Shown piece after piece: positions 56,133 through 58,198 of a DNA stretch of 64,000 nucleotides. Position numbers and translations under genes: made by a program. Source of the DNA: Streptomyces echinatus (GTDB lineage: Bacteria > Actinomycetota > Actinomycetes > Streptomycetales > Streptomycetaceae); NCBI RefSeq assembly GCF_014203595.1, contig NZ_JACHJK010000015.1:62001-126000 (forward strand), read 5' to 3'. The notes beneath the pieces are model-generated. The model saw only the letters and a program-made list of their open reading frames with translations. It was not told where the DNA came from and did no database searches. The stretch's first letter is position 1. Every line of letters begins with the position of its first letter.

Positions 56133-57716
56133 TCAGGCGAGCCAGGGCCAGCGGCCGTCCCGGCCGCTCTCCAGCAGCGCGACCATGCGGAACGCGGCGT
56201 CGGTGAGCCCGCCGAAGGTGTGCCGGTTCCCCGTGCCCGACGGACCGTGGCCCGCCCGGTAGCCCTCCAGGTTCCAGGTGTACACCGGGACGTGGTCCGG
56301 GACCTGGGCCGTGGGGCCGCCGTGCCGGTGCGGGGAGTACTGCTCGTCGGTGACGATCAGCACCCGGTCGTGCCGCCTGTAGTGCCGGCGCACCGCCTCG
56401 GTGGTGTCGGTGCCCCCCAGGTCGCCGAAGCGCTCCAGGACCTTCAGCACCGACTCGCCCGTGCGGAACCGGACCGTGTCACTGGTCGAGCCGAACTGGA
56501 CCAGGTCGGCGTCCGCCGCCCGCAGCGCGAGCGCCGTACCGAAGACCGCCGCCGCGTCCGCCCGGCTGAGCTGGGAACGCGCCGACACCTTCGACCAGAA
56601 CATCGAGCCCGAGCGGTCGACCAGGATCAGCGTCCGGCCCGGCAGCGCGGGCACGTTGGCCAGCGAGTGGCCGAGCGCCTGCTCCAGCGGGTAGGACCAG
56701 CGCAGCGAGGGCGCGTGCTGGTAGGCGGCCAGGTAGCGGAACGGGAACTGCCGCGAGCGGCGCACCTGCTCCGGGTCGCTGATCCTCGCCGCGACCTGGG
56801 CGGCGACCTCGTCCGAGACGCCGGCCTCGTCGAAGTTCCGCAGGTTGCGGACCAGCGCCATCGGGCCCATGGACGGAATCACCGCCTCCCAGGCCGCCTT
56901 GTCCAGCGGGCCCTGGAGCCAGCCGGCCAGCGCCTCCCAGGTGACGCCCGCCGCCGCCAGCCGCTCGGCACCGTCGGCCGAGGTGACGACTGCCCGCCGT
57001 GCCTCGACGGGCAGCGCCATCAGCTCGCGGTGCAGGGAGAGCGCCGGGAGCGACGCGGGCGGCACGGCGGTGTCCGGGTGGTGGCGCCGGTCGAGCGCGT
57101 ACCGGAAGAGGTCGCCCTGCCACGGCTTGTCCGGGTCCGGGGAGGCGTGCACCAGGTTGAGGATGTCGCCGAAGCGGTAGCCCTTGGACGCGGTGTCGTA
57201 CTTGAGCAGCGACCGGGCGTGGTAGAGCCGTCGTACGGCGTCGGCGACACCGCGCTTGACGGGCTTGGGCACGGCGCGGCCGTACGCCGACGTCCAGTAC
57301 GCGAGCAGCTCGCCGGGCTCGTCCGGGCGCTGCAGCACGGAGGCCACGACCTGCCGGTTCGACGGGCCGTCGGTCGCCCCGGCCGCCAGCCGTGCGTGCA
57401 CGTACTCGGCGGCGCCCACGAGGGAGGCCGTGCGCATGTTGCCCTCGCCGCGCAGCCAGCCCAGCAGTCCGGCCGTCCACTGCGGGTCCGCGACGGCGAG
57501 GTCACGGACGAGCCGGGCGAACCGGTCGTCACGGTCCTCGGCCTTCTCGTAGAAGGTGTCCTGCGAGACGAAGTCGGCGACGGCGAGCAGGAACAGCTCC
57601 GAGCGCGGGTCGCGCTCCTGGCCCCGGCCGCCCTCGTGGGTCCGCAGGACGCGGCCGGTCGATGCCACCGCCGACTTCGGCTGCGCCTTGGCGGTACGCG
57701 TGTTGAATCGCGCCAT
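56133..57716 (-). CDS. rsr: TROVE-domain protein, bacterial Ro60 homologue (Rsr)
   Basis: The 527-residue protein has the TROVE HEAT-like ring (about residues 30-350, for example LLGWLRGEGNMRTASLV and HPDTAVPPASLPALSLHREL) and a C-terminal VWA domain with the MIDAS D367-x-S-x-S371. Ro60/Rsr proteins are ring-shaped RNA-binding proteins that hold misfolded RNA and Y RNAs, and in bacteria they work with PNPase and exoribonucleases in RNA quality control and stress. The ATG at 57716 follows a GGGGGAA site. Three Y-RNA-like units lie immediately upstream on the same strand, as expected of an rsr locus. Confidence 0.93.
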   Translation of the reverse strand: MARFNTRTAKAQPKSAVASTGRVLRTHEGGRGQERDPRSELFLLAVADFVSQDTFYEKAEDRDDRFARLVRDLAVADPQWTAGLLGWLRGEGNMRTASLVGAAEYVHARLAAGATDGPSNRQVVASVLQRPDEPGELLAYWTSAYGRAVPKPVKRGVADAVRRLYHARSLLKYDTASKGYRFGDILNLVHASPDPDKPWQGDLFRYALDRRHHPDTAVPPASLPALSLHRELMALPVEARRAVVTSADGAERLAAAGVTWEALAGWLQGPLDKAAWEAVIPSMGPMALVRNLRNFDEAGVSDEVAAQVAARISDPEQVRRSRQFPFRYLAAYQHAPSLRWSYPLEQALGHSLANVPALPGRTLILVDRSGSMFWSKVSARSQLSRADAAAVFGTALALRAADADLVQFGSTSDTVRFRTGESVLKVLERFGDLGGTDTTEAVRRHYRRHDRVLIVTDEQYSPHRHGGPTAQVPDHVPVYTWNLEGYRAGHGPSGTGNRHTFGGLTDAAFRMVALLESGRDGRWPWLA

Positions 57717-57749
57717 GGTGAATTCCCCCGAATTCGTGAGCGTTTCGGA

Positions 57750-57929
57750 GGGAGGCGCAGCAAATGGAGGGTGCCCGAGGTCGAGAGTCGGCGGCGGTTC
57801 ACATACGGCTGCTCTACCCGCTGAGCTACGGCGTCCCGAAGACGCCGACGGGATTCGAACCCGCGCTCTGCCGTCCAAGGAAGTAACCGCTGCCTGCGCA
57901 CCGGACACCCACCATGTGCTGCGCCTCCC
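57750..57929 (-). promoter_or_regulatory. Long-range 18-bp helix enclosing Y-RNA unit C
   Basis: On the minus strand GGGAGGCGCAGCA (57929-57917) is perfectly complementary to TGCTGCGCCTCCC (57762-57750). After one mismatch, ATGG (57915-57912) pairs with CCAT (57767-57764). The helix would enclose unit C and end 33 bases before the rsr ATG. Its 5' strand shares GGGAGG with the closing stem of unit B, so the two structures exclude each other. It would be a natural RNase III substrate or a switch. Confidence 0.7.
57768..57909 (-). ncRNA. Y-RNA-like unit C, with permuted tRNA-like (YrlA-type) domain
   Basis: The ends pair as GGTGTCCG (57909-57902) with CGGGCACC (57777-57770). Inside, GCGGTT pairs with AACCGC, flanked by the conserved CGCCGA strand. 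The tRNA-like part runs in permuted order: T arm with loop TTCGAAT (57848-57864), an acceptor helix CGGCGTC/GACGCCG closed by a TTCGG loop (57829-57847), the TA linker, then a D arm GCTC-8-GAGC (57811-57826). Sequence between these is not a normal anticodon arm. This is the organisation described for bacterial YrlA RNAs. It lies directly before rsr. Confidence 0.85.
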
Positions 57930-57998
57930 GAGATCAGGTCGGCGGCGGTCGTGGATTCTTTGCAAAAGAAGTAACCGCAGCCTGCGCACCGGGAGGTG
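57921..57998 (-). ncRNA. Y-RNA-like unit B, minimal form without tRNA-like domain
   Basis: The 7-bp closing stem is CCTCCCG (57996-57990) with CGGGAGG (57930-57924). Inside, CAGG pairs with CCTG, CT faces CGCCGA, and GCGGT pairs with ACCGC. The apex is TTCTTT-TGC-AAAGAA. The 5' strand GGTGCGCAGGCTGCGGTTACTTC is almost the same as in unit C, and CGCCGACCTGATCT matches unit A, so it is a related RNA lacking the T arm, acceptor and D arm. Its ends overlap the long-range helix. Confidence 0.7.
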
Positions 57999-58011
57999 CG
58001 AAGTTCTTGGT

Positions 58012-58151
58012 GTCCAGAGATCAGGATCGGCGGAACCGACGTACGGTGCTCTGCCCCTGAGCTACACCGGCCTGTCGGAGCCGGTGGCGGGATTCGAACC
58101 CGCGGCCTCCCCATGATGAGTGGAAGTAGGTCCTGCCTGTCGCACCTGGAC
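58012..58151 (-). ncRNA. Y-RNA-like unit A, with permuted tRNA-like (YrlA-type) domain
   Basis: The closing stem is GTCCAG (58151-58146) with CTGGAC (58017-58012). Next come CAGG with CCTG, CA facing CGCCGAT, and GGACC with GGTTC. The tRNA-like part has a T arm GCGGG-TTCGAAT-CCCGC (58087-58103), an acceptor helix CACCGGC/GCCGGTG closed by 8 bases (58065-58086), TA, and a D arm GCTC-7-GAGC (58048-58062). The acceptor helix differs from unit C at most positions yet still pairs, which indicates selection on structure. It is the promoter-proximal unit. Confidence 0.85.
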
Positions 58152-58158
58152 GTGCACC

Positions 58159-58181
58159 ACTCTAGGAGGACGGCCGCGGGC
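58159..58181 (-). promoter_or_regulatory. Candidate -10 for the Y-RNA/rsr transcript
   Basis: On the minus strand TAGAGT (58164-58159) lies seven bases before the first base of the unit A closing stem, the spacing expected for a start at about 58151. Upstream is GC-rich and no good -35 exists at 17 bases; TTGGCC at a 19-base spacer is the closest. The short CGGCC-CGC-GGCCG hairpin in between may terminate the PhoX gene. Confidence 0.45.
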
Positions 58182-58198
58182 CGGGCCAACGAATTTGC

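What the first reader, a model, noticed from the sequence alone, without database searches (positions are those of the whole stretch)
57750..57929. Competing long-range helix that could switch or process the Y-RNA/rsr transcript
Seen: a 13-bp perfect helix plus four more pairs joins sequence after unit B to sequence 33 bases before the rsr ATG, enclosing unit C. Its 5' strand contains the same GGGAGG that closes unit B with CCTCCCG, so unit B folding and the long helix are mutually exclusive. Inference: either a double-strand-specific RNase cuts here to free unit C from rsr mRNA, or Rsr binding to one unit shifts the balance and autoregulates rsr.
Basis: partly seen in the sequence, partly recalled or inferred. 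Interest (0 to 1): 0.8.

Follow-up and report, generated by a model that had tools for sequence, protein, structure and literature searches.

The report
Y-RNA leader switch before rsr
In Streptomyces, the RNA upstream of the gene for the RNA-quality-control protein Rsr (bacterial Ro60) can fold in two mutually exclusive ways, one exposing and one hiding the start site for making Rsr, which suggests that Rsr controls its own production through a Y RNA built into its own messenger.

Summary
A 13-bp helix (57929-57917 with 57762-57750) joins the 3' strand of Y-RNA unit B to a segment 33 nt before the rsr ATG. It continues in register into unit C's own lower stem: 13+4+10 bp with two single mismatches. 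It shares GGGAGG with unit B's closing stem, so the two folds exclude each other.

The helix is conserved. In 136 Streptomyces leaders, 88.6% of pair positions pair. Its inner seven pairs covary beyond 1000 tree-based null alignments (0/1000 reach it); slid registers do not. The helix also persists, clearly in three leaders, where unit C is degraded or lost.

New here: the freed 3' arm (CCC, 57752-57750) can instead pair with the rsr Shine-Dalgarno sequence. In silico, unit B folding masks the SD (mean 5% unpaired) and the long helix exposes it (43%); this direction holds in 145/149 leaders, and controls lose it. The two states lie within a few kcal/mol.

Best reading: a cotranscriptional, Rsr-responsive translational switch giving negative autoregulation. 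Rsr is known to bind Y-RNA lower stems, so it should lock unit B and shut its own translation. RNase III processing remains possible. Rsr binding, direction of control and cleavage are inferred; no experiment was available.

The parts
58159..58189 (-). Promoter-like box TTGGCC-N19-TAGAGT upstream of the first Y-RNA unit
   Evidence: Consensus box (attAAtTcg.TcGC...CCtccTAgaGTGAT) aligned upstream of unit A in 117 leaders; in 48 leaders without unit A a related box (CCTCCTACAGTGAGAT) lies upstream of unit B; no such box between A and B. Inferred promoter; the sigma-70 scan finds none.
58012..58151 (-). Unit A: Y RNA with permuted tRNA-like module (stem GTCCA/TGGAC)
   Evidence: Rfam YrlA RF02553 partial match, 33.6 bits, E 1e-4; ARAGORN mis-calls it tRNA-Met
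57924..57996 (-). Unit B: Y-RNA-like stem without tRNA-like module; closing stem CCTCCCG/CGGGAGG plus GGTGCG..TGATCTC motif
   Evidence: Arms nearly invariant in 136 leaders; upper stem covaries, 1/1000 nulls
57985..58000 (-). Alternative hairpin CGCACC-TCCC-GGTGCG formed by unit B 5' arm when the long helix forms (breaks the presumed Rsr-binding motif)
   Evidence: MFE of the long-helix state; CACCTCCCGGTGCG almost invariant
57917..57929 (-). Long helix 5' arm GGGAGGCGCAGCA; first six bases shared with unit B
57750..57762 (-). Long helix 3' arm TGCTGCGCCTCCC; last CCC doubles as anti-SD
57769..57910 (-). Unit C: Y RNA with permuted tRNA-like module; stem 57910-57901/57778-57769 is continuous with the long helix
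   Evidence: Rfam RF02553 38 bits, E 6e-6; stem covariation 0/1000 nulls
57912..57915 (-). Four extra pairs (with 57764-57767) between long helix and unit C stem
   Evidence: 21-35 two-sided changes at two of these pairs; the 57915-57911 set covaries, 0/1000 nulls
57725..57752 (-). SD-masking hairpin CCC(U)CCGAA (57752-57744) / UUCGGGGG (57732-57725); overlaps the long-helix 3' arm by CCC
   Evidence: Pairing above all 1000 nulls but no two-sided covariation; SD partners in the unit-B state at offsets -2..+3 of the arm end in most leaders
57720..57735 (-). Near-invariant GAATTC-GGGG-GAATTC: alternative small hairpin with the SD in its loop
   Evidence: 97% paired against 57% in the null; seen in the long-helix-state MFE of L061 and L142
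57725..57729 (-). rsr Shine-Dalgarno GGGGG
   Evidence: conserved in leaders
56133..57716 (-). rsr, Ro60-like protein, 527 aa
   Evidence: relatives in 147 of 295 Streptomyces genomes at E<=1e-100

Best explanation
The leader is a bistable, cotranscriptional translational switch for rsr. Unit B folds first (predicted). If nothing holds it, the later-transcribed 3' arm CCUCCC captures unit B's GGGAGG, forming the long helix at the base of unit C; this occupies the anti-SD bases and frees the rsr SD, so translation is ON. If Rsr binds the lower stem of unit B as it emerges, GGGAGG is locked, the 3' arm pairs with the SD through CCC(U)CCGAA/UUCGGGGG, and translation is OFF. The result would be negative autoregulation of Rsr by a Y RNA in cis. 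Shown: conserved mutually exclusive helices, the overlap of the 3' arm with an SD-masking hairpin, and the in-silico coupling. Inferred: Rsr as ligand, its preference for unit B, and the effect on protein output.
For: (1) The long helix covaries (inner seven pairs 0/1000 nulls; slid registers not), and unit B's upper stem covaries as well (1/1000), so both folds look selected. (2) Forcing unit B leaves the SD 5% unpaired on average and forcing the long helix 43%; the direction holds in 145/149 leaders with native downstream sequence. Controls: shuffling the linker cuts the difference from 0.38 to 0.12, and inverting the shared strands abolishes it (-0.02). (3) The states are close in energy: median -4.2 kcal/mol in favour of the long helix, 5-95% range -8.8 to +0.8, a range that protein binding could overturn. 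(4) Folding of growing transcripts gives unit B P=0.86 while unit C is being made and 0.00 once the 3' arm is complete. (5) Rsr binds the lower stem of bacterial Y RNAs (PMC4726728, PMC8394870), the very part disrupted in the long-helix state. (6) Leaders that lost unit C but keep the helix clearly: L016, L122, L157 (0, 2 and 2 of 500 shuffles as good). (7) Helix and anti-SD are lost together in L112, L123, L131 and L168. (8) In other families of the class, rewritten versions with a C-rich arm able to pair with unit B or with the SD appear (L196, L198, L199). (9) One conserved promoter-like box upstream of the first unit and none between A and B suggest one transcript.
Against: No experiment. 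Unit B's closing arms never vary, so that helix has no covariation of its own, and unit A's stem is almost as frozen, so invariance is not proof of dual pairing. The SD hairpin is conserved in pairing but shows no two-sided covariation in Streptomyces. In the window the SD is only 28% unpaired in the long-helix state. A near-invariant GAATTCGGGGGAATTC suggests a further constraint. Outside Streptomyces the coupling is clear in only some leaders (weak in L192, L199; L198 too stably masked). L028, L167 and L189 keep a helix that is not clearly better than shuffles (114, 90 and 43 of 500). Energies ignore tertiary structure, modification of the tRNA-like part and proteins.
Confidence: 0.5

Rival explanations
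1. Processing site: RNase III (AbsB) cuts the long helix to free unit C as a mature Y RNA and separate it from rsr mRNA; overlap with unit B is incidental or sets the order of processing.
For: In the window the stem is 13+4+10 bp with only two single mismatches; RNase III needs about 20 bp (PMC5775266). Units and rsr appear to share one promoter-like box, so Y RNAs need some way to be released.
Against: The helix is kept in L016, L122 and L157, where unit C is degraded or lost. Internal loops are common between the helix and the unit C stem (40% and 34% pairing at two positions). It does not explain the SD coupling.
Confidence: 0.22
2. Structural extension: the helix is simply the lower stem of unit C, lengthening the Rsr-bound Y RNA and having no regulatory role; complementarity to unit B and the SD reflects shared G-rich and C-rich motifs.
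For: Same register as the unit C stem (i+j=115679), and strong covariation of that stem. A CCUCCC strand would pair with any SD by default.
Against: Helix retained without unit C in some leaders. The SD coupling depends on the linker and on strand identity. The CCUCCC arm sits directly beside the SD-hairpin strand while the loop after it varies widely in length.
Confidence: 0.2
3. Regulation of opposite sign or by another ligand: the SD hairpin is opened by Rsr binding to unit C, or tRNA-processing or -modification enzymes acting on unit C tip the switch.
For: Unit C carries both the Rsr-binding motif and the tRNA-like module and forms in both states.
Against: Unit C's stem is present in both predicted states, so its ligand would not choose between them; unit B's motif differs between states.
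Confidence: 0.08

Closest known systems
Bacterial Y RNAs / YrlA (Rfam RF02553), partners of Rsr/Ro60 in Deinococcus, Salmonella, Mycobacterium
   Same: Next to rsr; lower stem with conserved motifs, permuted tRNA-like module in units A and C; Rsr known to bind the lower stem (PMC4726728, PMC8394870)
   Different: Three units in tandem in the rsr leader, apparently cotranscribed; unit B lacks the tRNA-like part; the last unit's stem base competes with unit B and abuts an SD-masking hairpin. No report of cis control of rsr by a Y RNA was found in the held library
Autogenous translational switches of ribosomal-protein type (protein binds its own leader and hides the SD)
   Same: Works like one: protein-binding motif in the leader, alternative pairings, SD masked in one state
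   Different: The binding motif would be a Y RNA of an RNA-surveillance particle; protein binding and the effect on translation are not shown
RNase III processing stems around operon-encoded stable RNAs
   Same: Long, collinear, covarying stem enclosing a stable RNA in an mRNA
   Different: Persists without the enclosed RNA in some species; one strand shared with a neighbouring fold

Membership tests
Bacterial Y RNA (YrlA) | Encoded next to an rsr/Ro60 gene | tested here: met
   All three units lie within 440 nt upstream of rsr; same in relatives
Bacterial Y RNA (YrlA) | Long stem pairing 5' and 3' ends with conserved lower-stem motif | tested here: met
   GGTGCG/GATCTC-type motifs in all units; unit C stem covaries 0/1000 nulls
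Bacterial Y RNA (YrlA) | tRNA-like domain (at least one unit per species) | tested here: met
   Units A and C match the tRNA-like part of RF02553, unit B does not
Bacterial Y RNA (YrlA) | Reaches the Rfam gathering score of RF02553 | tested here: not met
   38 and 33.6 bits against a gathering score of 69; E 6e-6 and 1e-4. So described as Y-RNA-like rather than as RF02553 members
Bacterial Y RNA (YrlA) | Binds Rsr | not testable with these tools
   Needs a binding assay
Autogenous translational switch | Two mutually exclusive conserved folds | tested here: met
   Shared GGGAGG; long helix covaries, unit B upper stem covaries, unit B closing stem invariant
Autogenous translational switch | SD masked in one fold, accessible in the other | tested here: met
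   In silico only: 0.05 against 0.43 unpaired, 145/149 leaders, controls
Autogenous translational switch | Gene product binds and selects one fold, changing expression | not testable with these tools
   Needs reporter and binding experiments
RNase III processing stem | Near-perfect helix of about 20 bp or more | tested here: met
   13+4+10 bp with two single mismatches in the window
RNase III processing stem | Cleavage in vivo | not testable with these tools
   No transcript-end data for this locus were accessible

The most novel reading that the evidence does not exclude
A Y RNA (unit B) works in cis as the Rsr sensor of its own mRNA: Rsr binding during transcription stops strand exchange between unit B and the base of unit C, leaving the rsr SD masked. 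This would be a cis-regulatory Y RNA and a feedback loop for a Ro60-type surveillance particle.
Probability: 0.4. Interest if true: 0.8.

Novelty: new variant of a known kind. Interest (0 to 1): 0.62.

Why it matters
How bacteria set the ratio of Rsr to its Y RNAs appears to be open (no answer found in the held library). If the switch works, Rsr that is not bound to free Y RNA would bind unit B in the nascent leader and turn off its own synthesis, tying protein supply to RNA supply. It would give Y RNAs a cis-regulatory role besides tethering and gating, and would make Streptomyces a tractable system: one leader, a few point mutations and a reporter decide it. It also cautions that Y-RNA arrays should be read together with the mRNA leader they lie in.

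Tried and rejected
All-pairs covariation E-values were dominated by lineage differences in unit C's tRNA-like module and gave no usable ranking; replaced by helix-level tests against tree-based nulls. The first covariation sum had a coding error (boolean addition) and a wrong register for unit B's upper stem; redone. The first two-state folding wrongly used the window's first codons for all leaders; redone with native downstream sequence. The argument that unit B's stem is frozen because it must pair twice was dropped: unit A's stem is nearly as frozen, and leaders without the competitor keep it too. An upstream ORF starting at CATGG (57916) was considered and dropped: the ATG is not conserved. 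Intrinsic termination was rejected: no terminator-like site. A strict promoter pattern was too narrow; the consensus is used. Literature on RNase III targets (PMC5775266) does not mention this locus in its main text; Chen et al. 2014 (RNA 20:1715) is not held.

Full report
What is there. The window is from a Streptomyces chromosome (nearest named relatives are Streptomyces species). On the minus strand, rsr (57716-56133, Ro60-like) is preceded by three Y-RNA-like units. Unit A (58151-58012) and unit C (57910-57769) have a permuted tRNA-like module and match Rfam YrlA below its gathering score. Unit B (57996-57924) has the same lower-stem motif (GGTGCG ... TGATCTC) but no tRNA-like module. ARAGORN reports unit A as tRNA-Met, an expected false call for such a mimic.

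Check of the observation. GGGAGGCGCAGCA (57929-57917) pairs perfectly with TGCTGCGCCTCCC (57762-57750), 33 nt before the ATG. Four further pairs and then unit C's own 10-bp lower stem follow in the same register, so the long helix is the collinear base of unit C: 13+4+10 bp with two single mismatches. Its first six bases are the strand that closes unit B (CCTCCCG/CGGGAGG), so the two folds exclude each other.

Conservation. rsr leaders were collected from public genomes. In 136 leaders with the full architecture, 88.6% of long-helix cells are standard pairs, against 40-62% in slid registers; two-sided changes occur outside the shared GGGAGG (57920/57759 in 35 leaders, 57922/57757 in 11), and also in the linking pairs and the unit C stem. 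Against 1000 null alignments that replay the inferred substitutions along the tree, covariation of the inner seven pairs (0/1000), the linking pairs (0/1000) and the unit C stem (0/1000) is significant, and pairing of the shared six is too (0/1000); slid registers are not significant at that level. The tree was built from the leader alignment itself. Branch counting gives 10 double changes that keep pairing in the inner seven pairs, against 0-5 in slid registers. Some relatives have rewritten the middle of the helix entirely (L142 GGGAGGCACGCGTGCGGGAT with ATCCCGCACGTCACGCCTCCC). Unit B's closing arms are invariant; the competing 3' arm varies on one side, mostly C to U, which keeps G.U pairs.

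The ribosome-binding site. Directly 3' of the arm lies UCCGAA, and CCC(U)CCGAA can pair with UUCGGGGG, which contains the rsr SD. The CCC of the long-helix arm thus has two partners: GGG of unit B's 3' strand, or GGG of the SD. With constrained partition functions and native downstream sequence, the SD is on average 5% unpaired when unit B is forced and 43% when the long helix is forced; the direction holds in 145 of 149 Streptomyces leaders. In the window the values are 0% and 28%. Shuffling the linker reduces the difference from 0.38 to 0.12, and inverting the shared strands abolishes it. The SD hairpin is conserved in pairing beyond all nulls but shows no two-sided covariation within Streptomyces, because the SD itself is invariant. 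In a divergent Streptomyces clade it is rewritten (CCCCUC ... GAGGGG). In another family of the class, arms such as L198 CCCCUCUC or L199 CCUCC can pair with either unit B or the SD, although the predicted coupling there is uneven.

Energetics and order of folding. The two states differ by a median of -4.2 kcal/mol in favour of the long helix (5-95% range -8.8 to +0.8). On growing transcripts unit B's stem is predicted at P=0.86 while unit C is being made and collapses to 0 once the 3' arm is complete. That gives a time window in which a unit-B ligand could decide the outcome.

Transcription. A conserved promoter-like box lies upstream of the first unit, whether that is A (117 leaders) or B (48 leaders), and none is seen between A and B. 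No terminator-like site is present. The units and rsr are therefore probably one transcript (inference).

Telling the explanations apart. If the helix only served to excise or extend unit C, it should vanish with unit C. In L016, L122 and L157 unit C is degraded or lost, yet the helix is kept better than shuffled sequence (0, 2 and 2 of 500 shuffles); L028, L167 and L189 keep a weaker version that shuffles can match. In L112, L123, L131 and L168 the helix and the anti-SD are both gone. This favours a role of helix plus anti-SD as a module, but the samples are few. Rsr is known to bind the lower stem of Y RNAs (PMC4726728, PMC8394870). In the long-helix state unit B's lower stem is dismantled and its 5' strand forms CGCACC-UCCC-GGUGCG instead. 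So Rsr should favour unit B and thereby the SD-masked state: negative autoregulation. This step is inferred.

Verdict. Observation confirmed and more than chance. The autoregulation idea is the best-supported reading, now with a concrete path to the SD. RNase III processing is possible and not mutually exclusive. The parts are of known kinds; the arrangement, a Y RNA as a cis switch on the mRNA of its own protein, was not found in the held literature, which lacks most subscription journals.

Noticed in passing
57811-57828 and leaders L003-L171: Unit C's D-arm-like part comes in two types: GTAGCTCA..GAGC (about 90 of 136) and GTGGCGGAA..GACGC (about 44), the second resembling a tRNA-Leu-type D arm, often with an extra variable-arm-like insert.
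   Followed up: partly
57720-57735: GAATTCGGGGGAATTC is almost invariant before the rsr ATG in most Streptomyces leaders; it could be a hairpin with the SD in its loop or a DNA/RNA-binding site.
   Followed up: partly
G000:C3:784059-785618 (L002): The same genome carries a second rsr-like gene (72% identity) with no tRNA-like Y motif detected upstream.
   Followed up: no
L189 upstream of rsr: Unit C is replaced by a perfect 18-bp hairpin (GGCAGCGGGGCCCGGCGG-GATA-complement) flanked by GGGAGGC/GCCTCCC.
   Followed up: partly
58077-58149: ARAGORN reports a tRNA-Met (CAT) inside unit A; it is a Y-RNA tRNA mimic and a likely annotation error in public genomes.
   Followed up: partly
L014, L022, L061, L078: Unit B's upper stem is deleted down to a few bases while its lower stem and Rsr-type motif are kept.
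   Followed up: no
Streptomyces genus: Only 147 of 295 Streptomyces genomes have an rsr relative at E<=1e-100, so the system is patchy.
   Followed up: no
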